Below, in pieces: positions 48,168 through 60,779 of a DNA stretch of 64,000 bases. Every line of letters begins with the position of its first letter. Positions within the stretch are counted from its first letter, which is position 1. The stretch covers positions 1 to 64,000 of the forward strand of contig PCXA01000014.1 of the NCBI GenBank assembly GCA_002796325.1, in the 5' to 3' direction. The notes beneath the pieces are model-generated. The model was not told where the DNA came from. It saw only the letters and a program-made list of their open reading frames with translations, and did not search any database. Made by a program: the position numbers and the translations under genes. Origin of the DNA: Deltaproteobacteria bacterium CG11_big_fil_rev_8_21_14_0_20_47_16 (GTDB lineage Bacteria; UBA10199; GCA-002796325; 1-14-0-20-47-16).

Positions 48168-51100
48168 ATGGATTGGTTTCTGAAGTGGTATAAATTATGG
48201 GTGGGCGTATGGATGGTGACACTGATGGGGAGTGTGGCGCCTGTACATGCCACACTTTTCGAAAAACCGGGTGCCGTTTCTGAAACCACCACGCAAGTTC
48301 GTCAAGATTCCGCACATATTTTGTCCCAAGCCTATCAACTCTCCGGTCTCAAAGAGACAACTCAAAATTTGGCAGCACGGTATTTAAACGAAGCCCTTTC
48401 CCAAAAGGCAGCGGATTGGGTGGGGCAGGCGATTACGTCTGTCATTGCTGAACATAAAGGTCCCAGTTTTCGAGAAAAATTAAATGATCCCAAGCTGCGC
48501 GCCGAGATGAAGATGCGCGTTGCGGCACGTATTCGCGAAGAGATGCCCAAGCTTGCCAAGAAAGTTGTCTATGAGCGCCTCATGCAGGGGGCGTTATCCG
48601 AAACCGATCCTGTGGCGCAAAAGATGGTGGGACATATGGTTGATGCGATGACAACGCCGCTGAATACGCAAATCGATCAGTGGGCCGATACTGCTTATAA
48701 TACAGCGATCGGTCAGGTGGATCGGTATTTGAAAACAAGTGTCTCGTTGGGACGTGGGAACACGCTTAACCTGGATGCCACGGATCTGCGCGGGACGATT
48801 GATCGGGCTGTGCGTCTGGAGACGATTACAGATGCGATTGCTACGCCCATGGCACATGCCTTGGGTGAATCCACGTTTACGAATATGCAAGAACGGCTTT
48901 CGACATTTTTGGATGATGAGCTGCCACCGGAAATAGCGCACGCGATTCGTGCGGGGCCCGAACAAGTCGATGCGTGGATTGCGCAAGGGAAAGGGTATTT
49001 GCCAAGCGAACAAATGAGTCGTTTGAAAGATAAAGTCCTGTCGATGCCGGTCATCACTATTCCCAACGAAGTTTATGGCCCCACATTGGCGGGTTCTGCT
49101 GCACGGCATTTTGCACTCGCGTTTGCCGACTTCCCGATTGTGAATGCCTATGAATTGAATCGTGGTCGTGAAGTGACGCAGGTCATGATTTGGCAGCTGC
49201 GCAATAAAACGGGCATTACGCTGAATGTGGGCCAACTGTTGGACTTAAGTCAGTGGGCGTTGGGTCAAGTTGGGGGTCTGGGGCAATTTGGGCGAAGCGT
49301 TGCCGAGATGCGGGGGCAAATTAATGAGATTGAGTCGCAGTTAAAAGGAATTGAGGGGCAACTTACCGGAGCCGTCGATCAGTACAATGCGTTACTCAAA
49401 GAAAAGGTCGCGCAACTCGAGGCCTCACTCAAAAAATATCAGGAGATGGCGGCAGCACCGGTGCGTGATGGGATTGCATGGGCCAATGAGTCATTAGGTG
49501 GAGCGCGCGACTGGCTCACGGATCAGTTGCCGGAAAATATGAATGGGATTCCTTCGACATGGGGAGATTTTAAAAGGACGGCAGGGATTCCCGATAAAGT
49601 GCTGGGTGATTTTGGTGATAAGTCGCCTATGGATATAACTGGTGTGGCTGAAAAGTTGAAGACGTGGAATGCAGCCTTGGCCGATCAAATGGCCAATGTA
49701 CTGGTGGATAAAGCGCATGCATTGTTGCCCCAGCCTGAAATTGCACCAGAAGAAGAAAATCCGGCACAAAACCCAAGCGAAAGTGAGGACTACGACCCTG
49801 TGGTGTTGCACAATGGTGAATTTGTGCATCCGGTTGTAGATGTTATGATTCCAGGTCGCGGTTTGAATTTTGAATTTAAACGCATCTATCGCAGTCGCAG
49901 TCATTTTATAGGACGACTGGGGTGGAATTGGACCAGTAATCTAGATGAATCGCTGCAAACCTGGGTTGCGCCCTCTGGTCCTGGCATTACGTGGGTGGAT
50001 GCGGATGGGCGTAAGTTCTTTTTTGCAGCGCGCACAGATCAGTTAGGTGCGTTTGTATCTCCTGCAGGTGTTTTTGTTCAACTGCGTACCATTTGGAATG
50101 ATGGTGAAAAGTTCTTTGAAATTAAAACGCCTGAAGGCCAGGTGACGCGCTTTGATCATCGGGGGCTACTCCTTTCAACTTGTGATCGTTATGATAACTG
50201 TTTGCGTTATGAGCGTGATGCCAGCGGTTTGCTCTCGTCAGTTCTTGATACGGTGGGGCGTCGCGTGGTGTTTTCATATGACCATGTTGGGCGTTTACAG
50301 AAGATGACGGATAGCGCCAGTCGTGAATGGCGTTATGATTATGATGCCAACGGCGATCTTGTGCATGCTGTTTCCCCCAATAACATTGTGACAGCTTATT
50401 ATTACAGCAGTGGACAGCCCGATGAGTCGCTTAATCACAACATGACAGCGACACGTGATCCAAGAGGTAATCTATATTTGCGTAACATTTATGGGAAATC
50501 AGGATTTGCGCATGATCAAGTGGTTGCGCAGTCCTATGGTGGTGGCAATCATGTGGTGAAAAGTCGATGGGTGATGCTGCGTCCTTTGTGGGTGGCGCGC
50601 CAAATGCCAGACTCAATGAATGTGGCGGTCAGTCGTGTGGACTTGCGTGACCGGCGCGGCATTGTGAAGCGGTATTGGCATAACGCGGCGGGGAATGTAC
50701 TCAAAAATGATCTGATTGATAGTGCGGGTCGCGTGCATTTGGGGATGCGGTATCGCTATGATGATAATAGTTTGCGCGTTGCTGAAATTCTGCCGAGTGG
50801 CGTGCGAATTCAAAAGCAGTATCACAATGCACAGATTGCTCTGTATCAAGTGAACGATCGCAAAACGATAGTTCAGTACGAGGATCGCTGGAACGCCCCA
50901 ATGCGCATGACTACGCCAGATGGTCTTGTGACTGAATGGCATTATGATGCACGCGGGTCGCTGTGCTTGATGCGCCGGTTTCCGGAAAATGACCCCGCCC
51001 ACGTTATTCAATCCCATTTTCAATCCAACCACTACGGACAACGTGATCAGATGAAAGATGCCGTGGGCGCTGTCACGAGCTATACGTATGCTGGTGCAAA

Positions 51101-54100
51101 TTTGGTTGCCATGGTTCGGGATGCAACAGGGCTGCGTGAGGCAACGCAATATCGTTATGACGCGATAGGTAATATTATAGAAATGATACTCCCCAATGGG
51201 GGTGTTCGAAAATTTGATGTGGATGCGCAGAATCAAATTTATCGTGAAACCACACCAATGGGATACGTGTACCGGTATGCGTATGATGCTAATGGCAATA
51301 TGATTGCAATGCATGTTGGTGATACCAAATATCAATTCGAATACGATATCTTGGATCGCTTGGTAATGAAAGACGATGCCGTTTCAAAGACTCGCTATGC
51401 ATATGATGTGAATAGTCATCTCATTGAAGTTGTGTGGCCTGAAGGAAATGCCACGCGCTATATCTACGATGCCATGGGTCGCGTGACACAGATGATTAAG
51501 GGAAAACCGGGTCGTGTACGTACTCAGTATCAGTATGATGTTGATGGTAATATCGTGGGAATTGGTGATGGTACGGGAAATCTGACAATCGTTCATCGAA
51601 ATGCATATGGAGAAGTAACGTCTGTTAAAAACCCAAATGGTCTTTTGCAGGAGTGGGATCGCAATACATGGGGAGTGGTTGTTGCAGAACGGTCTAGTGG
51701 CCGTGATGGATTACGTTTGGCGGAGACGCGCTTTTCGCAAGATGCTCTGAGGCTTCAAAAGACAACCTCACGTTGGGATTCAGATCATCAAAAATGGCTA
51801 ACGACAGTGGATCGCTTTGATGCGTTGGGTCGACTAATACGTCAGCAGTCTCCTTCGGGGGCGATTGTTCAGAGGTCTTATGATGGCATAGGGAATTTAC
51901 TACGCCTCGAATTACCAGAAGGGGTTGGGTACCGTTGGGAGTATAGTGCGCTGGGTCTTCCTAAAAGGGAAGTTGCGCCTGGTGGCGGGGTAACTCAGTT
52001 CGAGTATGATCTTCAGGGGCGTCTTGTTTCTCAACGACTACCTAATTTGGCACTGACAACATATTCCTATAATGCGCATGACAATATTACTGAGATCCAC
52101 CCTCCAGAAGGTGCAGTGATTCGCTATTCCTATGATGCAGCAGGAAGACGGACGGTTGTAGATGCCGAAGGTCGTGTGACGCGTTACGACTGGGATGGAA
52201 ACGGACGGTTGCGACGCTTGGTGGATCACGAAGGTGCCGAGACGTTGTATGGTTACGATAACGAAGATCGGTTGCAGCAGATGCAGTATCCCGATGGTGG
52301 TGTAGAATCGTATCAATATGATCGCAATGACTATGAAGTAGGGCGATGTTTGGATGCACACTGTATTGCTTCCCAAGTGGATGTGATGGGGAATGTGACG
52401 CAGCGGCGTGCGGGGGATGTTCAACAGCGTATGATTTATGATCCGTTGGGTCGCATGGTTGATGCTGAGCAGGGCGATTCTAAAATAACCATTCAATATA
52501 ATACGCTATCCCAGGTGAACCGTGTGAATCAAAACCAGTTTGATGTGGTGATGCGCTACAATGACGATGGGTTTCGCCAATCGCTTTCATACTCAGATAG
52601 TCAATCAATTGAATGGCAGCGTGATGCGTTAGGGCGCGTGACGAAAATCAACTCGGGTCCAGTGCAAGTGCCACAGGTTTGGGATAGTTATGGGCCTAGC
52701 CGGGTGCAGCTTGGTAAACAGGTAGATGGATATCAATACGATGCGATGGGAAATGTTGTGTCACAAATGGTCGCTGGTAATGTTTCTCATTACCACTATA
52801 ACGCATTGGGTGATGTGACGTCACAGAACAATATTCAGTATACTTATGATCCTTGGGAGCAATTGCGCACAGCAGGCCATCAGATATTTGAATACCATAA
52901 AAAGCCAGAGCCGACCTATGATCGCCGCGGTAATTTAATGCAAGATGGTCAACTCATTTATCACTATGATGCATTGGATCGATTGAGTGCTGTAGATAAT
53001 GCAAGTGGAATTCCGATTGCTCGATATTTTTATGATGCCCTGAATCGTCGAATTGCCAAAGAGATTTACAAAAAAAATGGTGGCTGGACACATATAGACT
53101 ATCGCTATGATGGATGGGAGCTGGTGGATATCGTCGAAGCCAATCAACAGATTCAATATGTGAGTGAAGATCGTTTGGATGGCATTGTCGCGATGCGTGT
53201 TACAATTAATGGGCTAGAGCAAGGTTATTATTTGCATCGGGATCGCCTGGGAAATGTGATTAGTGTCAGTGATGCCGCTGGTAAAATTGTCGAGCGATAT
53301 GCGTATGATCCGTTTGGTCAACCACAAACGATTTCAAAAATGGGCAATGTGCGCATGTTCACAGGTCAAGTCTATGACGCAGAAACAGGTCTCTATTATA
53401 TGCGCAATCGGTATTATTCCCCGCGCCTCAGGCAGTTTCTAACGCGGGATCCCATTGGGTATAAGGCACTTCTGTATAGCCCATCGTCTGTACCAATGCC
53501 TGTAGGGTTTTCGTTCCATCGAAGCCTAGGTGCAACAACTCATGCGAGTTTACCCAACCAAATGGGGGGTATGTTGCTTGATACATCGTTATATGTGTCC
53601 AATCTGCTTGCCCAAAATGGCGTGGGTGTTGAGACAAATTTGTATACTTATGTTGGCAATAATCCACTCAATGAAACGGATCCCTTGGGGCTTTATTACA
53701 TGCGGCTTAATCGGGACCGTGGGTTGATGTATTTGTACTCTCAGACTGGTAACTATATTGATGGCTGGGATGTGGGAACGCGTGGCAGTCACGACAATCG
53801 TCTTAAACGCTTGGGTGACACCCCAAATGGGATTTATAAGGTTACATCGGCAACGGGTGGGCTTGATTATCGGCACCCTAAAATTACAATGACAGTGAAC
53901 GGTAAAAGGCGGGTGATTGGCCCTGAATCATATGGGTTGGGCTATCTTGGACTTCAGCCAATCGCGATAGAACCAGGGGCAAAAGGGCGTAGTGGTTTGG
54001 CGATTCATGGGGGCGGTTCAGGGCTTAAAAATGCCCTGGAAAATACGCACCAGAAATTGGTTTCGACTTATGGCTGTGTGCGTATGCATAATGACGACAT

Positions 54101-54275
54101 TATTCATCTTGTGGACCATGTTCATCAGCTTGAGGCGCAAGGTGACGATCAAGGAACATTGTTGGTCTATAGTGAGTCTATGTCTGCAACAGCCGATCCA
54201 TTTAACGAGCGGGTGCGTTCGGATTATCGGTATTTGCCGGGGGCGGTTGGGGGGAATGCCTATGTCTTACATTAA
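48168..54275 (+). CDS. RHS-repeat polymorphic toxin with C-terminal L,D-transpeptidase (YkuD-like) tip
   Basis: From ATG 48168 the protein has 2035 residues. A Sec signal peptide (FLKWYKLWVGVWMVTLMGS to APVHA) is followed by ~510 mostly helical residues without known domain. From ~545 come DUF6531-like sequence (HNGEFVHPVVDVMIPGRGLN) and dozens of YD repeats (YRYDANGN type). The RHS core has YLHRDRLGNVISVSDAAGK, AYDPFGQPQ and RNRYYSPRLRQFLTRDPIGY. After an unusual ~60-residue insert, NPLNETDPLGL matches the P-x4-DPxGL autoproteolysis site (Leu1842). The released tip (~193 residues) has IHGGG (His1947) and STYGCVRMHN (Cys1970), an L,D-transpeptidase signature in which the usual Ser-His-Gly-Cys has Tyr for His. 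It likely attacks peptidoglycan. Start uncertain: no strong ribosome site; TTG 48138 is an alternative. Confidence 0.82.
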   Translation: MDWFLKWYKLWVGVWMVTLMGSVAPVHATLFEKPGAVSETTTQVRQDSAHILSQAYQLSGLKETTQNLAARYLNEALSQKAADWVGQAITSVIAEHKGPSFREKLNDPKLRAEMKMRVAARIREEMPKLAKKVVYERLMQGALSETDPVAQKMVGHMVDAMTTPLNTQIDQWADTAYNTAIGQVDRYLKTSVSLGRGNTLNLDATDLRGTIDRAVRLETITDAIATPMAHALGESTFTNMQERLSTFLDDELPPEIAHAIRAGPEQVDAWIAQGKGYLPSEQMSRLKDKVLSMPVITIPNEVYGPTLAGSAARHFALAFADFPIVNAYELNRGREVTQVMIWQLRNKTGITLNVGQLLDLSQWALGQVGGLGQFGRSVAEMRGQINEIESQLKGIEGQLTGAVDQYNALLKEKVAQLEASLKKYQEMAAAPVRDGIAWANESLGGARDWLTDQLPENMNGIPSTWGDFKRTAGIPDKVLGDFGDKSPMDITGVAEKLKTWNAALADQMANVLVDKAHALLPQPEIAPEEENPAQNPSESEDYDPVVLHNGEFVHPVVDVMIPGRGLNFEFKRIYRSRSHFIGRLGWNWTSNLDESLQTWVAPSGPGITWVDADGRKFFFAARTDQLGAFVSPAGVFVQLRTIWNDGEKFFEIKTPEGQVTRFDHRGLLLSTCDRYDNCLRYERDASGLLSSVLDTVGRRVVFSYDHVGRLQKMTDSASREWRYDYDANGDLVHAVSPNNIVTAYYYSSGQPDESLNHNMTATRDPRGNLYLRNIYGKSGFAHDQVVAQSYGGGNHVVKSRWVMLRPLWVARQMPDSMNVAVSRVDLRDRRGIVKRYWHNAAGNVLKNDLIDSAGRVHLGMRYRYDDNSLRVAEILPSGVRIQKQYHNAQIALYQVNDRKTIVQYEDRWNAPMRMTTPDGLVTEWHYDARGSLCLMRRFPENDPAHVIQSHFQSNHYGQRDQMKDAVGAVTSYTYAGANLVAMVRDATGLREATQYRYDAIGNIIEMILPNGGVRKFDVDAQNQIYRETTPMGYVYRYAYDANGNMIAMHVGDTKYQFEYDILDRLVMKDDAVSKTRYAYDVNSHLIEVVWPEGNATRYIYDAMGRVTQMIKGKPGRVRTQYQYDVDGNIVGIGDGTGNLTIVHRNAYGEVTSVKNPNGLLQEWDRNTWGVVVAERSSGRDGLRLAETRFSQDALRLQKTTSRWDSDHQKWLTTVDRFDALGRLIRQQSPSGAIVQRSYDGIGNLLRLELPEGVGYRWEYSALGLPKREVAPGGGVTQFEYDLQGRLVSQRLPNLALTTYSYNAHDNITEIHPPEGAVIRYSYDAAGRRTVVDAEGRVTRYDWDGNGRLRRLVDHEGAETLYGYDNEDRLQQMQYPDGGVESYQYDRNDYEVGRCLDAHCIASQVDVMGNVTQRRAGDVQQRMIYDPLGRMVDAEQGDSKITIQYNTLSQVNRVNQNQFDVVMRYNDDGFRQSLSYSDSQSIEWQRDALGRVTKINSGPVQVPQVWDSYGPSRVQLGKQVDGYQYDAMGNVVSQMVAGNVSHYHYNALGDVTSQNNIQYTYDPWEQLRTAGHQIFEYHKKPEPTYDRRGNLMQDGQLIYHYDALDRLSAVDNASGIPIARYFYDALNRRIAKEIYKKNGGWTHIDYRYDGWELVDIVEANQQIQYVSEDRLDGIVAMRVTINGLEQGYYLHRDRLGNVISVSDAAGKIVERYAYDPFGQPQTISKMGNVRMFTGQVYDAETGLYYMRNRYYSPRLRQFLTRDPIGYKALLYSPSSVPMPVGFSFHRSLGATTHASLPNQMGGMLLDTSLYVSNLLAQNGVGVETNLYTYVGNNPLNETDPLGLYYMRLNRDRGLMYLYSQTGNYIDGWDVGTRGSHDNRLKRLGDTPNGIYKVTSATGGLDYRHPKITMTVNGKRRVIGPESYGLGYLGLQPIAIEPGAKGRSGLAIHGGGSGLKNALENTHQKLVSTYGCVRMHNDDIIHLVDHVHQLEAQGDDQGTLLVYSESMSATADPFNERVRSDYRYLPGAVGGNAYVLH

Positions 54276-54356
54276 ATTGGAGTTTCCTTTGCTCTGTGAC
54301 GTAAAGTGACTTGACGAAATGGTTGCTTTGAGAAATGACTAGTTCCAGTTCATCAT

Positions 54357-54890
54357 ATGAAAAAATATCTTACATTGATTTTGTGTATCGGCGTTATTAT
54401 TTCTGCGCCTGCCCAAGCCGGCATGATGGTGTGGGGTGTTGGTTATGCCATGTCGGTTCCAGAGCCTGATGGATGGGTAGCAACAGGTGATGTTAAGCAA
54501 ATTGATACTATTGCAATGGGTCTATATCAAAAGGGCTATAATTGGGACAGCTCTCCTGCAGTAATGTATGCACACCTGATGCTAAATCAAACATCTCTTA
54601 AGAAGGCTGTGTCACAATATATTTCTAAGGCTCAGATGGAATGTCCAACTTTAAAAGTTGAGAAGATTGATTCGCATACTAAAAGATTTATTTGCAATGA
54701 AGGCAGCTCTCCCACCTATCGCCTAGTACGCTTCATAAATATTAATAGAATGAATGTACTCTGGATTTTAAGTTCACATTCAATAGATAGTCTAAGTGCG
54801 TCTGCGCCCATTTTTGAAGAGGTTTCCCAGTCTGCAACCTTGGAAAGAAAGCTTGTCCCTTGGAATCATCGTACCTATACGGTCCACTAA
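54357..54890 (+). CDS. Candidate periplasmic immunity protein for the RHS toxin
   Basis: This 177-residue protein has a Sec signal peptide (MKKYLTLILCIGVIISAPAQA, cut after AQA). The mature part begins GMMVWGVGYAMSVPEPDGW and contains two Cys in its centre (QMECPTLKVEK, KRFICNEGS) that may pair. It has a mixed alpha/beta look with VRFININRMNVLWILSSHS. It lies 81 nt after the RHS gene in the same direction and nothing else separates them. Position, small size and periplasmic export fit an immunity protein against a cell-wall toxin. No homologue was recognised, so this is inference. Confidence 0.55.
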   Translation: MKKYLTLILCIGVIISAPAQAGMMVWGVGYAMSVPEPDGWVATGDVKQIDTIAMGLYQKGYNWDSSPAVMYAHLMLNQTSLKKAVSQYISKAQMECPTLKVEKIDSHTKRFICNEGSSPTYRLVRFININRMNVLWILSSHSIDSLSASAPIFEEVSQSATLERKLVPWNHRTYTVH

Positions 54891-54989: not shown

Positions 54990-55142
54990 ATGAAACGCTG
55001 CGCTGGCACAAGCTCAACTGAATTTATGCTGATGGTGGTTCTGTTAACCACTATGGCCGTTCTGTGTCGTTACCGACTGTGGTGGTCGGTAGTCGATCTA
55101 ACAGCACAAGTTGTGAATGTTGTTGCAAGGGAGGGAATATGA
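54990..55142 (+). CDS. Minimal Flp-like prepilin ahead of flp
   Basis: This 50-residue product begins MKRCAG, then TSSTEFMLMVVLLTTMAV. The short basic leader ends in Gly6, followed by Glu at position +5 and a hydrophobic helix, precisely the type IV/Flp prepilin processing rule. The remainder is short (LWWSVVDLTAQVVNVVAREG). It overlaps flp by ATGA. No good ribosome site precedes it. It is shorter than most prepilins and could be a minor pilin or assembly initiator. Confidence 0.55.
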   Translation: MKRCAGTSSTEFMLMVVLLTTMAVLCRYRLWWSVVDLTAQVVNVVAREGI

Positions 55143-55351
55143 AATCCATTTTTAAGAGACTAAGCCGCAATCAACGCGGGGTGGCCGCAACTGAATATAT
55201 GTTGATTATTGCGGTCATTGTCATTGCGGTGGTGGTGATTGGTAAAAAGGTTTTTGTAGATCAATTCTTCACGCAGGGCGTAACCGCTGCCGGTAGCACC
55301 GTTCAAAAGTGGCTGACCTGTGACCCGAGCAACGCAGACTGCAATGAATAG
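55139..55351 (+). CDS. flp: Flp-type major pilin
   Basis: This 70-residue prepilin has a basic leader MKSIFKRLSRNQRG, cleavage after Gly14, Glu at +5 and Tyr at +6 (VAATEYMLII), the Flp signature, then a hydrophobic helix IAVIVIAVVVIG. The C-terminus carries two Cys (TCDPSNADC), possibly a disulfide. GGAGG lies ahead of the ATG, within the preceding mini-gene. It ends 8 nt inside the tadE gene. Confidence 0.85.
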   Translation: MKSIFKRLSRNQRGVAATEYMLIIAVIVIAVVVIGKKVFVDQFFTQGVTAAGSTVQKWLTCDPSNADCNE

Positions 55352-55706
55352 GCAACGGGGGTCAGCGGCTGTGGAGACCATGCTTGTGATGCCACTTTTA
55401 TGTCTACTGCTGGTTGTGGTTTTGCGATTTGCGCTGCTCTGTATTGAAGGGCAGTTGGTAGAGTATGCAGTGTTCATGGCATCACGCAGCTATCGTGTGA
55501 TGGGGGATGTGGTGTCAGAAGTTAAACGCATTGCTCCGTGGATGCATGTGACAATTGATAGTGAGTCGCAAACCCTTTATGTGCGGGGACGTCCGTCGCT
55601 TTTCTCTGCCGGTTTACAGAAATCGCTTATCGTAACCCCACACCCACAGACTCATACCAATGCCGAAGACAATCCCATTTGTAGCGCTGGGGGTGACGCA
55701 TGCTGA
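55344..55706 (+). CDS. TadE-like pseudopilin
   Basis: This 120-residue protein starts MNRQRG, then SAAVETMLVMPLLCLLLVVV: cleavage after Gly6 with Glu at +5, as in TadE/TadF pseudopilins. The rest is a soluble domain with a Pro/His-rich end and Cys residues (ICSAGGDAC). Start at 55344 overlaps flp; the upstream extension of the frame is flp shadow. It ends 7 nt inside the TadG-like gene. Confidence 0.8.
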   Translation: MNRQRGSAAVETMLVMPLLCLLLVVVLRFALLCIEGQLVEYAVFMASRSYRVMGDVVSEVKRIAPWMHVTIDSESQTLYVRGRPSLFSAGLQKSLIVTPHPQTHTNAEDNPICSAGGDAC

Positions 55707-56443
55707 CGACATTTATGGCGATCATGATGCCGGTTATCGCACTCCTGATGATTGCCGTGATCAATGTCAGTCATGTGGTCTATGCGAAGATACGATTGCA
55801 AGATGCAGCCGATCGCGCGGCCTATGTGGGTGCTGCCAAGCAGGCTTATATTATGAATCGCATGGGTGAAGATAATCTGGCGATTCAGAAAAGGTTTTCT
55901 GATCTGAAAGAGGAGCTCACGCATAATAGTAAGCAAACGGTGGAGAAAGGGCGTGAACGCGTATCTCAGGTGCGCAGTGAAATCATGGGACGCTGGCAAG
56001 AGATGGAGGCGTGGAATGATGGTGCGTGGGAGACTGTTCGTACCACATCGCAAGACTTGCTTTCTAAGGGCTATGCAGGCGCTTGGCTTATTCCACAAAA
56101 GTCCTCGCGACTTCTGACGCTTTTGGATCATGCAGAAACAGATCAATATCAAAAATTAAAATTTGATGGCATGCGCGGGGACTTGTTCTTCGATCCTGCT
56201 GATCACGATGATGGTGAAGATTCAATATTGAGCTATCTCGTCAAGGATCCGCTGCATGAAGTGCGTTGGGAAGTCACGGCTTGTGCTGTTATGCCCAACC
56301 TTCTGTTGGCCTCCAAATTTCAAAATATCAATCATCAGCTGTGTGCAAGCGCGGCGGCCCAACCCCATGGCGGCAGTATTCGCAGTGGTGCGCCCTACCA
56401 AGTGAGTTTTGTTCCAATCCGGAGGGACCATGTACGCCAATGA
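55700..56443 (+). CDS. TadG-like membrane protein
   Basis: This 247-residue protein has an N-terminal transmembrane helix (FMAIMMPVIALLMIAVIN) followed by VYAKIRLQDAADRAAYVGAA, the TadG/Tad_N pattern where a helix precedes an alanine-rich D-AADAAA-like turn. The remainder is a long helical periplasmic domain (RFSDLKEELTHNSKQTVEKG). The usual von Willebrand domain of TadG is absent. It overlaps both neighbours. Confidence 0.65.
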   Translation: MLTTFMAIMMPVIALLMIAVINVSHVVYAKIRLQDAADRAAYVGAAKQAYIMNRMGEDNLAIQKRFSDLKEELTHNSKQTVEKGRERVSQVRSEIMGRWQEMEAWNDGAWETVRTTSQDLLSKGYAGAWLIPQKSSRLLTLLDHAETDQYQKLKFDGMRGDLFFDPADHDDGEDSILSYLVKDPLHEVRWEVTACAVMPNLLLASKFQNINHQLCASAAAQPHGGSIRSGAPYQVSFVPIRRDHVRQ

Positions 56444-56675
56444 GCGCGGATCGGCGATGCTAGAGTTGTTGTGGTGGTCAGTGGCGATCGCATGGCTTAT
56501 CCATATGATGATCATGTTCGTTGTAAAGCCCGTTTTGGTGCATGACCACAGATGGATGTCGCGCATTTCCGAGACGCACACGCTCGTTGGTCACACGGTA
56601 TGTTTAGAAACACTCAAGTCAGACGTGAATCACAATACCACATTTGTGCAGGAGGCCGTATGTCAGGGATTTTAA
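56430..56675 (+). CDS. Second TadE-like pseudopilin
   Basis: This 81-residue protein begins MYANERG, then SAMLELLWWSVAIAWLIHMM. It has a Gly before the cleavage site, Glu at +5 and a hydrophobic helix, the pseudopilin rule. GGAGGG precedes the ATG. The rest is short and polar with one pair of Cys (VCLETLK, EAVCQGF). It overlaps the TadG-like gene by 14 nt and cpaB by 16 nt. Confidence 0.65.
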   Translation: MYANERGSAMLELLWWSVAIAWLIHMMIMFVVKPVLVHDHRWMSRISETHTLVGHTVCLETLKSDVNHNTTFVQEAVCQGF

Positions 56676-57481
56676 ATCGCCTTACAGAGAAAAATCTCTG
56701 GATGATTGTGTTAGCCGCGGGAGTCATTGCAGCGTTGAGTGTTGTGGTTTTTCTGTCGGGACTGTGGCGACAGTATCAGTTTCAAAGTCAGCCGGTCTAT
56801 GTGGTGATGGCCGCGCGTAATATTGCGCCGCAAACTGAAATTTTAGCAGGCGACGTGGTGCTTCAAAGTGTGCCGCGTCGCTATGCGCCGCCGGCAGCCA
56901 TTCAACAATTGGTGGCTGCTGTCGGGCGTATTGCGGCAACGGCGATTCCAGAAGGGACTGTCCTAACCTTGGCTACCACAATGGCACCAACGGCCAAGGC
57001 AGGGATCGCAGGGAGTTTGCCGCCAGGAAAACGTGCCGTTTCAATTGCAGTCGATGATGTCAATGGTGTGGCGGGTCTCATTCGCCCCGGTAATTTTGTA
57101 GATTGTCTGCTCACGGTGGATTTTGGCGATGATGTGGGGAGCCGCTTTACCACATTGACGCTGCTTGAAAATATTCCGGTCATTGCGATTAATCATAACC
57201 TCTTTCCGCCGGCGGTTTCTCCTCAGGAAGGAAAGGCTAAAAAGTTCACTTCCGATGATCATGAAGGTCGTCAAATGGTAACGGTCGCAGTCTCACCAGA
57301 TGCGGCAGCAACACTCATGCTTGCACAAGAAAGTGGTCGCATTCACCTGACACTTAGGCCGCAGTCAGATCCGGAAATGAGCCATGTTGCGCCCATGACA
57401 TTGGATCGTATGACGCAGATGCGTGGTGTGGTGCGTCCCCGATCACGGCCGGCATATATGGAATATCGAGGTGGACGATGA
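56660..57481 (+). CDS. cpaB: Flp pilus assembly protein CpaB/RcpC
   Basis: This 273-residue protein has one N-terminal membrane helix (NLWMIVLAAGVIAALSVVVF), then a SAF domain: VYVVMAARNIAPQTEILAGD, then AIPEGTVLTLATT. LPPGKRAVSIAVDDVNGVAG starts the RcpC/CpaB domain, with RPGNFVDCLLTVDF following. Start at 56660 has GGAGG; the longer frame is shadow. CpaB helps build or gate the secretin. It overlaps cpaC by ATGA. Confidence 0.88.
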   Translation: MSGILNRLTEKNLWMIVLAAGVIAALSVVVFLSGLWRQYQFQSQPVYVVMAARNIAPQTEILAGDVVLQSVPRRYAPPAAIQQLVAAVGRIAATAIPEGTVLTLATTMAPTAKAGIAGSLPPGKRAVSIAVDDVNGVAGLIRPGNFVDCLLTVDFGDDVGSRFTTLTLLENIPVIAINHNLFPPAVSPQEGKAKKFTSDDHEGRQMVTVAVSPDAAATLMLAQESGRIHLTLRPQSDPEMSHVAPMTLDRMTQMRGVVRPRSRPAYMEYRGGR

Positions 57482-58983
57482 TGAATCATTTTGTCACCCG
57501 AATTTGTGTGTTGATGTATGTAGTCGGATTTTCGGTAATGCTCCATGCTGCTCAAATTGGCCCACAAAATATTGTGCGCGGTCAGTCGACATCGATTGAG
57601 ACAGATTACGATATTGGCAATGCAGCAATGAGCGACTCTGCAATTTGTGACTATGTCATCCAATCCAATCGGCATGAAATTTATTTAAATGGGCGCAAGG
57701 CAGGAACTGTCACGCTGACACTATGGGATACCCAGGGTGCGCGTCGTGATGTGGTCCCTATTTCGGTTTCCAGTCAAGATATGGCGCAACTTTCACAAGA
57801 AGCCGCTGAAATTTTTGGACCCGGTACGCAATTGAAATTGTCGCGCACCGGGGACCAAGTGGTGATTGATGGGGAAGCGGCAACAGCAGCTGAAGTTAGT
57901 AAGATAGATGATTACCTGCAACGTAATCCCAGTGTGCGTAGTGTCGCGCGATTGTCTGGTGCTGCACAATCCGAGTTGGCACACAAAATTGAAGCAGAGA
58001 TTGAAACACCAGGTATTCATGTACGTGCGGTCAAGGGGCGTTTGCTCATGGAAGGTCTGGCGTATAGTGCAGAAGCAGCCAGTCGTGCTGAAAAAATCGC
58101 CAAACTATTCGATCCCAATATTATGAATCTCATTGAAGTCAAGGAAACCAAGCGCCGTCCGGGTCGTGAACCCATGGTGGTGTTGGATGTCTATTTTATG
58201 GAAGTCAAAAAATCGGTCATCCGAACGCTGGGTATTAATTGGACACCTGGGGGAACCCCCTCCAGTGGAATGAGAGGCGCAGGTGGTATGTTTGGTAATT
58301 TGATTGGGTCTGCGGTTGGTACGGTCTTTAATCTCTTGCCTAAAATTCAGTGGATTCACGAAACGGGTAACGGACGTGTGTTGGAACATCCGTCATTACT
58401 TGTAAAGAGTGGTGATTCCGGAGAGCTGTTTAGTGGAACAGAGGTGCCGTATTACTCCGCACAGAATGTGCAATTCAAAAATGTGGGTATTAAGTTGGAA
58501 GCAGAACCCATTTCTTCAGGTGGTGCCGTGGACCTCAAAATTTCCGCCACACTTTCAACATTATCAGCGGGTGTGAATCAAGGCATCGATACCCACACAG
58601 TCAACACAACCGCATATTGCAAATCCGGTGAAAGTATTGTGCTCGCGGGGCTGTATCGTAATGGCGATTCCAAGACGTGGAATCGCTTGCCGACGGGAGT
58701 GGACACCTCATCGGCACTCTTTACGTTAGCATTTTCGCGCGACTTTCAAAGTCATACTACCGACTTGCTCATATTTGTCACACCCCGAGTGGTGGATGCG
58801 GGTGTCGATGCGCAAGCGCAGATCCAAAAATTCAACACGCTTGATGAGGCGATCACAAAGAAACGGTCTAAAAAGGAATGGCGCAGACAGAATGTCACTG
58901 ACATTGAAACTCACGATATTGCGTCACACCCTTATACCATCGAACTCCCAACAAGTTTGCAGCCTAACGGGGGTAACTCATGA
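57478..58983 (+). CDS. cpaC: Flp pilus outer-membrane secretin CpaC/RcpA
   Basis: This 501-residue secretin has a signal peptide (CVLMYVVGFSVMLHA), an N-terminal pilus-assembly domain (YDIGNAAMSDSAICDYVIQS, GRKAGTVTLTLWD), a BON-like/N1 region and a C-terminal secretin core. The core shows MVVLDVYFMEVKKSVIRTLG, VLEHPSLLVKSGDSGELFSG, GIKLEAEPI and SHTTDLLIFVTPRVVD, the secretin signature. It forms the outer-membrane pore for Flp. The insert GMRGAGGMFGNLIGSAVG is the expected gate or membrane loop. Confidence 0.92.
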   Translation: MMNHFVTRICVLMYVVGFSVMLHAAQIGPQNIVRGQSTSIETDYDIGNAAMSDSAICDYVIQSNRHEIYLNGRKAGTVTLTLWDTQGARRDVVPISVSSQDMAQLSQEAAEIFGPGTQLKLSRTGDQVVIDGEAATAAEVSKIDDYLQRNPSVRSVARLSGAAQSELAHKIEAEIETPGIHVRAVKGRLLMEGLAYSAEAASRAEKIAKLFDPNIMNLIEVKETKRRPGREPMVVLDVYFMEVKKSVIRTLGINWTPGGTPSSGMRGAGGMFGNLIGSAVGTVFNLLPKIQWIHETGNGRVLEHPSLLVKSGDSGELFSGTEVPYYSAQNVQFKNVGIKLEAEPISSGGAVDLKISATLSTLSAGVNQGIDTHTVNTTAYCKSGESIVLAGLYRNGDSKTWNRLPTGVDTSSALFTLAFSRDFQSHTTDLLIFVTPRVVDAGVDAQAQIQKFNTLDEAITKKRSKKEWRRQNVTDIETHDIASHPYTIELPTSLQPNGGNS

Positions 58984-60779
58984 AAGTGATTTGCTTTGTG
59001 GGCGCCAAGGCGGGGGTGGGTACAACGACAACGGCAGTGAATGTGGCCTTGCGTCTACAGTCAGCAGGTGAACGCGTTTGCATTGTAGATGCGGCCCCTG
59101 ATGGCTGCCCTGACGTCGGATTTTTGCTGGGCTGCCCGTCGCCACTGCGCCTGGCGGAGCAATTGCTTTCTCATCGCAATCAATTGGTGGCGAGTCAGGT
59201 GCCGGGGTATCTGTTTATTCCTCGGGTGGGTATTTCCGCTGTGCATCTCAGTCGTATGGAAGACTGGTTGGAGCTGCGTGAAATGCTCTCGGCCTTCTCA
59301 GTTGTTGTTGTAGATGGTCTTGTTGCCAATCCAGATTGTGTCATGATGCATGCGTCGCCCGATCCATTGTCACTGCGTGCCATTAAAGCCGCACTGGAAC
59401 GTCTACACGATCAGCTCATATCCCCGCAGCGCATCTCTTTTGTGATGAATCTTTGTGAGTCGAGCGATGGGGGTGTCAAAGAAGTCGTGCAGGAGCTGTG
59501 TGGTGATCGTCCCATCCATTTTATACAATCGGAATCCGCTATGATGCGACAGGCGGCACTTTCAGGATCCCCATTGGCGCTTCGAAGTGAATCACACCGC
59601 ATCCATCAAGAGTGGGATCGGATTGCCTCAGCGATTCGCGAGCTACCCGAATGGCGTCTTGATGTTGCTGCCAGTGCAGAGTCGTTGCATCAGAAACTGC
59701 TTACACAGTTTCAGGATCAAAAGTCGGACATAACAGATCGCTCAGAAGCACTGCTGCATATTCGTCAATTGCTGGCAAAAATTTCCGAAGAGGATCGCAT
59801 CGGGATTGATGTGGAAGTATTAGTGTCCAGCGTGGCAAATGACGCCCTTGGTTTGGGTCCATTGGAACCCATTATGCAGGATCCAACAGTGACTGAAATT
59901 ATGATCAACGGGTCCAAGCAAATTTATGTGGAACGATTGGGGAAGCTGTCACAACTGGCAACATCAATCCCAGAAGAATCAATTTCACGCATTGTAGAGC
60001 GCATTTTGGCGCCATTGGGTCGACGTGTGGATGAAAGCACACCGATGGTGGATGCGCGTCTTGCCGATGGTTCGCGTGTCAATATCGTCATTCCGCCACT
60101 GGCGCTCAATGGGGCCACGATTACGATTCGTCGCTTTTCTCCTACATCGTGGTCTTTGGAGGATTTGATTCGGATGGGAAGTGTGACGTTGGAAATGTCC
60201 GCGATATTGCGCGATGCAGTGAATCGCCGCAAAAATATCATTGTCTCGGGGGGAACCGGTTCAGGAAAAACAACGTTACTCAATGTGTTGTCGTCGGAAA
60301 TCTCAGCCGATGAACGTATCATTACGATTGAAGATGCTGCCGAACTCAAGCTCTCACAACCCCATGTGGTGCGATTGGAATCGCGACCTGCTAATTTGGA
60401 AGGGCGTGGTGCAGTGACAATTCGCGACTTGGTCAAGAACGCGCTGCGCATGCGTCCCAATCGCATCATTGTTGGGGAATGTCGTGGTGCTGAAGCGCTC
60501 GACATGTTGCAGGCGATGAATACGGGACATGATGGCTCACTTACGACGGTGCATGCCAATAGTCCGCGTGCGGCACTTTCCCGTTTGGAAACCTTGGTGA
60601 TGTTTGCCGGGATGGATTTGCCTGCGCGCGCTATTCGGGAGCAACTTGCCGGTGCAGTGCAGATGATTGTCCAAATTGCCCGTCGCCCCAATGGTCAACG
60701 GGTCGTGACCGAGATTGCAGAATTGGTTGGCATTGATGGTGATCAACTTGTTCTCAATACTACAGGAGCGGCTGCATGA
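58980..60779 (+). CDS. CpaE-CpaF (TadZ-TadA) fusion ATPase
   Basis: This 599-residue protein joins two Tad proteins normally encoded separately. Residues ~1-235 are a CpaE/TadZ-like MinD ATPase: KVICFVGAKAGVGTTTTAVN has the deviant P-loop Lys but no GKT Lys, as in CpaE. A receiver domain is absent. Residues ~270-599 are TadA/CpaF secretion ATPase. It shows LGLGPLEPIMQDPTVTEIMI, Walker A GGTGSGKTT (424-432), IIVGECRGAEALDMLQAMNT, and the HDGSLTTVHANSP His box. Walker B and arginine fingers are intact. The start overlaps cpaC by ATGA. Confidence 0.9.
   Translation: MKVICFVGAKAGVGTTTTAVNVALRLQSAGERVCIVDAAPDGCPDVGFLLGCPSPLRLAEQLLSHRNQLVASQVPGYLFIPRVGISAVHLSRMEDWLELREMLSAFSVVVVDGLVANPDCVMMHASPDPLSLRAIKAALERLHDQLISPQRISFVMNLCESSDGGVKEVVQELCGDRPIHFIQSESAMMRQAALSGSPLALRSESHRIHQEWDRIASAIRELPEWRLDVAASAESLHQKLLTQFQDQKSDITDRSEALLHIRQLLAKISEEDRIGIDVEVLVSSVANDALGLGPLEPIMQDPTVTEIMINGSKQIYVERLGKLSQLATSIPEESISRIVERILAPLGRRVDESTPMVDARLADGSRVNIVIPPLALNGATITIRRFSPTSWSLEDLIRMGSVTLEMSAILRDAVNRRKNIIVSGGTGSGKTTLLNVLSSEISADERIITIEDAAELKLSQPHVVRLESRPANLEGRGAVTIRDLVKNALRMRPNRIIVGECRGAEALDMLQAMNTGHDGSLTTVHANSPRAALSRLETLVMFAGMDLPARAIREQLAGAVQMIVQIARRPNGQRVVTEIAELVGIDGDQLVLNTTGAAA

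What the first reader, a model, noticed from the sequence alone, without database searches (positions are those of the whole stretch)
48168..54890. RHS toxin ending in an L,D-transpeptidase-like domain with a downstream periplasmic immunity candidate
The C-terminal tip after the P-x4-DPxGL autoproteolysis site carries IHGGG and STYGCVRMHN, an L,D-transpeptidase signature, with a Tyr where most have His. The next gene is a small protein with a cleavable signal peptide. RHS tips are usually nucleases or deaminases. A peptidoglycan-editing tip recalls the type VI effectors of the Tlde1 class, but here it sits on a Sec-signal RHS protein. The pair forms a plausible cell-wall-directed toxin/immunity module that I do not recognise as described.
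Basis: partly seen in the sequence, partly recalled or inferred. Interest (0 to 1): 0.88.

Follow-up and report, generated by a model that had tools for sequence, protein, structure and literature searches.

The report
RHS cell-wall toxin with immunity candidate
A large secreted RHS protein ends in an enzyme domain that edits bacterial cell walls and is followed by a small exported protein that probably protects the producer; this kind of toxin was already described in 2012, but its protector family appears to be unregistered.

Summary
The window encodes a 2035-aa RHS protein with an apparent signal peptide and a P-x4-DPLGL site. Its 193-aa tip scores above Pfam's cut-off for YkuD (L,D-transpeptidase). 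The Foldseek ranks 1-8 of its (mediocre) model are all L,D-transpeptidases. The Tyr is not unusual: relatives carry Y, H, Q, K, F or L there. The module type is not new: Zhang et al. 2012 (PMC3482391) list "Tox-LD-peptidase" as an RHS toxin domain, including Sec/T2SS versions with linked immunity. New here is the partner. The 54357 gene (ImmA) matches no Pfam or NCBIfam family, yet homologues directly follow the same RHS-YkuD tip in two other genera of this small phylum. In three other genomes an unrelated exported helical protein (ImmB) takes that place and occurs nowhere else in the phylum's 46 genomes. Two cautions. Four relatives carry RHS-YkuD tips without a visible immunity gene, so a self-directed wall function is not excluded. 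Best reading: an antibacterial peptidoglycan-targeting RHS toxin/immunity pair, a new member of a known kind. Toxicity, wall activity and neutralisation are untested.

The parts
48168..48251 (+). predicted Sec signal peptide of the RHS protein (MDWFLKWYKLWVGVWMVTLMGSVAPVHA)
   Evidence: read from the sequence; ATG 48168 preferred over TTG 48138; no signal-peptide predictor was run
48168..54275 (+). RHS polymorphic-toxin-type protein, 2035 aa (2045 from TTG 48138)
   Evidence: Pfam DUF6531 and RHS_repeat, NCBIfam YD_repeat and Rhs_assc_core
49794..50018 (+). DUF6531 domain at the start of the RHS shell
   Evidence: residues 553-627 (TTG numbering)
53304..53468 (+). Rhs_assc_core domain
   Evidence: residues 1723-1777 (TTG numbering)
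53664..53693 (+). P-x4-DPLGL autoproteolysis-type site
   Evidence: sequence; DPxGL precedes the tip in all tip-bearing relatives
53694..54275 (+). C-terminal L,D-transpeptidase (YkuD) tip, 193 aa
   Evidence: PF03734 over cut-off; Foldseek ranks 1-8 are L,D-transpeptidases
54003..54017 (+). IHGGG motif holding the presumed catalytic His
   Evidence: invariant IH
54063..54077 (+). STYGC motif holding the presumed catalytic Cys
   Evidence: invariant T-x-G-C
54357..54890 (+). ImmA: exported 177-aa immunity candidate (apparent signal peptide 54357-54419)
   Evidence: homologues directly follow the same tip in G024 (L013:7655-8188) and G005 (L015:2443-2964); no Pfam/NCBIfam family

Best explanation
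A Sec-exported RHS polymorphic toxin. The RHS/YD repeats form a shell, and autoproteolysis at P-x4-DPLGL frees a tip of about 21 kDa with the L,D-transpeptidase fold inside it. Delivered into the periplasm of a neighbouring Gram-negative cell, the tip uses Cys1970/His1947 to attack the meso-DAP3-D-Ala4 bond of peptidoglycan stem peptides. It would trim tetrapeptides or exchange D-Ala4, and so disturb cross-linking. The downstream exported protein ImmA would neutralise the tip in the producer's own periplasm. Shown: architecture, fold family, intact motifs, recurrent pairing. Inferred: autocleavage, delivery, wall activity, toxicity, neutralisation.
For: YkuD over cut-off and RHS domains. L,D-transpeptidases are the first eight Foldseek hits. 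Catalytic motifs are invariant across seven RHS tips. ImmA homologues lie directly downstream in three genera, with an 81-bp gap in the window and no terminator-like site, an 11-bp gap in G005 and a 4-bp overlap in G024. In G007, G019 and G014 an unrelated exported protein (ImmB) overlaps the same position and occurs nowhere else in 46 genomes: one toxin kind with exchangeable small periplasmic partners. In family f5, where most loci carry immunity genes, tips (29-42% identity) have diverged more than the RHS shell (45-49%). One carrier has a metallopeptidase-like tip and another an unrelated tip plus a small exported protein. ImmA has lower GC (0.41) than the RHS gene (0.48). In G033 an ImmA homologue follows a non-RHS protein with IHKGG..SKGCQ, beside a VgrG3-C-like enzyme followed by an LprI lysozyme inhibitor.
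Against: G034, G032, G011 and probably G037 (contig ends there) carry RHS-YkuD tips with no immunity gene visible next to them. Most carriers in the phylum keep a YkuD tip, so the tip turns over slowly for a polymorphic toxin. ImmA relatives elsewhere are stand-alone. No T6SS sheath gene exists in the genome, so the delivery route is unknown. The tip model has pLDDT 63.
Confidence: 0.68

Rival explanations
1. The RHS-YkuD protein is a self-directed surface protein: the transpeptidase domain links or anchors the RHS shell to the cell's own peptidoglycan, or remodels it, and the small downstream genes are regulators or accessory factors.
For: In family f9 (G032, G011, G037) the YkuD tip is better conserved (45-57%) than the shell (31-36%), and no immunity gene follows it in G032 or G011. 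In family f5 the locus keeps a fixed place beside uvrB.
Against: The tip sits exactly behind the P-x4-DPxGL release site, which would separate it from the shell. Some orthologous carriers have quite different tips. Two unrelated exported partners recur at the tip-bearing loci.
Confidence: 0.2
2. The tip is a toxin but ImmA is not its immunity protein: it is a stand-alone secreted protein of a broad family that happens to sit next door.
For: Stand-alone members in six other genomes outside the phylum and in G015. Support for a clade of the RHS-linked members is weak, 56/41.
Against: A single-copy gene directly follows the tip in three genera with different surroundings, which chance does not explain.
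Confidence: 0.1
3. The tip is an inactivated or pseudo-enzymatic domain.
For: None beyond the substitution of His by Tyr before GC.
Against: His and Cys motifs are intact and invariant, and the substituted position is variable even in B. subtilis YkuD.
Confidence: 0.02

Closest known systems
Tox-LD-peptidase of polymorphic toxin systems (Zhang et al. 2012, PMC3482391)
   Same: YkuD-type thiol peptidase as C-terminal domain of RHS proteins, including T2SS/Sec-exported ones, with linked immunity proteins; predicted to attack stem-peptide cross-links
   Different: the listed partners are Imm16 (DUF2750) and Imm57; neither ImmA nor ImmB was matched by any immunity family in Pfam scans
Tlde1 (DUF2778/PF10908) T6SS effectors with Tldi1
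   Same: L,D-transpeptidase-fold toxin with an exported immunity protein; Tlde1a shows L,D-carboxypeptidase and exchange activity (PMC9638812)
   Different: no Tlde1_dom match for this tip at E<=0.1; no T6SS sheath gene in the genome; carried by an RHS protein
Phage-encoded L,D-transpeptidases in IMG/VR
   Same: GDTPPGLYKIG, IHGGG and ST(H/Y)GCVRMHN signature, up to about 38% identity
   Different: stand-alone or fused to a lytic domain; in a tree they lie apart from all RHS tips
Cellular Ldt/YkuD enzymes (two ordinary ones in this genome)
   Same: same Pfam family
   Different: short exported enzymes without an RHS shell

Membership tests
RHS polymorphic toxin | RHS/YD repeats with RHS-associated core followed by a DPxGL site and a separate C-terminal domain | tested here: met
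RHS polymorphic toxin | orthologous carriers with exchanged tips | tested here: met
   10 carriers have YkuD tips of two types, G002 a metallopeptidase-like tip, G029 another tip; the shell rejects grouping G000 with G034 while the tip mildly rejects grouping G000 with G005 (modest and post hoc)
RHS polymorphic toxin | adjacent immunity gene | tested here: inconclusive
   6 of 7 type-1 tips have a small exported gene next door, G034 has none; type-2 tips show none; neutralisation untested
RHS polymorphic toxin | toxicity of the released tip | not testable with these tools
   needs expression
Tox-LD-peptidase / YkuD PF03734 | sequence score over the family cut-off | tested here: met
   31.7 bits against 23.4
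Tox-LD-peptidase / YkuD PF03734 | catalytic His, [ST] and Cys | tested here: met
Tox-LD-peptidase / YkuD PF03734 | fold | tested here: met
   first 8 Foldseek hits are L,D-transpeptidases, but model pLDDT is 63 and TM about 0.33
Tlde1 effector (PF10908) | Tlde1 domain match | tested here: not met
   no match at E<=0.1
Tlde1 effector (PF10908) | delivered by a T6SS | tested here: not met
   no VipB/TssC in a 99.75% complete genome
Imm16 / Imm57 for the 54357 gene | match to a described immunity family | tested here: not met
   no Pfam match at E<=0.1 or E<=1
PsbP/MOG1 fold for the 54357 gene | profile similarity to PsbP | tested here: inconclusive
   one distant homologue matches PsbP below cut-off, E 0.006; hhalign with one CyanoP gives 0.8% probability

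The most novel reading that the evidence does not exclude
In this phylum the RHS-YkuD protein is an ancestral, self-directed wall-modifying or wall-anchored surface protein, kept without immunity in some families, from which exchangeable toxin/immunity versions (ImmA, ImmB) were derived. RHS shells would then not be only weapon carriers.
Probability: 0.15. Interest if true: 0.6.

Novelty: new member of a known kind. Interest (0 to 1): 0.38.

Why it matters
It extends RHS-borne L,D-peptidase toxins to a small, poorly studied phylum. It names two candidate periplasmic immunity families (ImmA, ImmB) that match no Pfam or NCBIfam model and could be tested as inhibitors of L,D-transpeptidases, a group of enzymes involved in beta-lactam tolerance. 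The contrast between tips with and without immunity genes inside one orthologous carrier makes it testable whether such RHS proteins are always weapons.

Tried and rejected
(1) 'Undescribed module': rejected by PMC3482391. (2) 'Tyr is unusual': rejected. (3) Tlde1 membership: not met. (4) T6SS delivery: no sheath gene. (5) PsbP/MOG1 fold for ImmA, suggested by one weak hit and by the PsbP/MOG1-like fold of the immunity protein Tsi3 (PMC3792639): not supported by hhalign; a single-sequence AlphaFold model was useless (pLDDT 44). (6) ImmA or tip on plasmids, tip in INPHARED phages, ImmA in IMG/VR: no match. (7) Homology of the G033 effector domain (IHKGG..SKGCQ) to YkuD: only suggestive (4.9% probability with a single-sequence template). 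(8) The 7-row tip alignment was too divergent for the genome-contig scan; a 3-row one returned three loci.

Full report
OBSERVATION. Pfam places YkuD over its curated cut-off in the tip: 31.7 bits for the tip alone and 27.7 for the whole protein, against 23.4. DUF6531, RHS repeats and the RHS-associated core are present. Two ordinary YkuD proteins exist elsewhere in the genome. The downstream 177-aa protein has an apparent signal peptide, no Pfam or NCBIfam family, and one copy in the genome.

FOLD. A 19-row alignment (RHS tips plus phage and cellular enzymes) gave a mediocre model (pLDDT 63, pTM 0.63). Even so, the first eight Foldseek matches in the PDB are all L,D-transpeptidases, led by LdtMt2 (E 5e-3, probability 0.99, TM 0.33). 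Profile search hits B. subtilis YkuD at the catalytic motif. The position before GC, a Tyr here, is H, Q, K, F or L in relatives, so the substitution carries no message.

RELATIVES. The held set has 46 genomes for the whole phylum, which here equals the class. The RHS amino-terminal part is found in 14 of them. Seven genomes have the type-1 YkuD tip. Three more (G032, G011, G037) have a divergent YkuD tip that scores just under the cut-off but keeps IHGG..T-x-GC-x-R. G002 carries a metallopeptidase-like tip (HEGGHWFGLPD), and one G029 copy has an unrelated tip followed by a small exported protein. In a tree, RHS tips, including one from a Pyrinomonadaceae genome, lie apart from phage and cellular L,D-transpeptidases, though support is weak (74/89).

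PARTNERS. Directly after type-1 tips lies ImmA (like the window's gene) in G000, G024 and G005, or ImmB (an unrelated small exported helical protein) in G007, G019 and G014. Several overlap or nearly touch the RHS stop codon. ImmB occurs in the phylum only in this position. G034 shows no partner. The type-2 tips of G032 and G011 show none; G037's contig ends there. An ImmB-like protein also follows the Pyrinomonadaceae RHS-YkuD gene, with one more ORF between. ImmA belongs to a wider secreted family: 11 of 385 genomes have a member. Three follow RHS-YkuD, one follows a non-RHS protein with an IHKGG..SKGCQ motif in a G033 locus that also pairs a VgrG3-C-like enzyme with an LprI lysozyme inhibitor, and seven stand alone. 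ImmA's fold is unresolved.

EVOLUTION. Among family f5 loci the shell is 45-49% identical but the tips only 29-42%; in family f9, where no immunity gene was seen, it is the reverse (shell 31-36%, tips 45-57%). The shell data reject grouping G000 with G034, while the tip is closest to G034 and mildly rejects G000 with G005. This was tested after seeing the identities, with long branches, so it is only suggestive of tip exchange. ImmA has lower GC (0.41) than the RHS gene (0.48).

KNOWN OR NEW. Zhang et al. 2012 (PMC3482391) list Tox-LD-peptidase as a polymorphic toxin domain on RHS proteins, with T2SS, T6SS and TcdB/TcaC routes and immunity families Imm16 and Imm57, and propose cell-wall cross-link hydrolysis. 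Tlde1 (PMC9638812) is a functional analogue, not the same family: no PF10908 match, no T6SS sheath gene. What seems unregistered is the identity of the two partner families.

VERDICT. Most likely an antibacterial, peptidoglycan-targeting RHS toxin with a periplasmic immunity protein (0.68). The main rival is a self-directed wall protein (0.2), kept alive by the relatives without immunity genes. Steps shown are architecture, fold family and recurrent pairing. Autocleavage, delivery, wall chemistry, toxicity and neutralisation are inferred.

Noticed in passing
window 55064-60779: A Tad/Flp pilus cluster (Flp-like pilin, TadE/G-like, RcpC/CpaB, secretin, TadZ/TadA-type ATPase) starts right after the module; in several relatives the RHS gene instead sits by uvrB, so a delivery link is unproven.
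   Followed up: partly
L023:5037-12798 (G033): Array of proteins that seem to share an amino-terminal region but carry different C-terminal enzymes (one LDT-motif-like, one VgrG3-C-like), followed by exported immunity-like genes (ImmA homologue, LprI); looks like another peptidoglycan-effector locus.
   Followed up: partly
L051-L104 (IMG/VR): Many viral contigs encode L,D-transpeptidases with the GDTPPGLYKIG..IHGGG..STHGCVRMHN signature, some fused to an amino-terminal domain that looks like a glucosaminidase; their role in phage biology is unclear.
   Followed up: no
window about 53465-53665; same region in L012, L013, L016, L017: These RHS proteins carry an insertion of about 55 aa (GYK..SYH-x-G-x-GG..LLD-x-DL) between the first DPxG and the final DPLGL, apparently typical of the phylum.
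   Followed up: no
L127:6289-6873 (G002): Orthologous RHS carrier with a metallopeptidase-like tip (HEGGHWFGLPD), below Pfam cut-offs for several peptidase families.
   Followed up: partly
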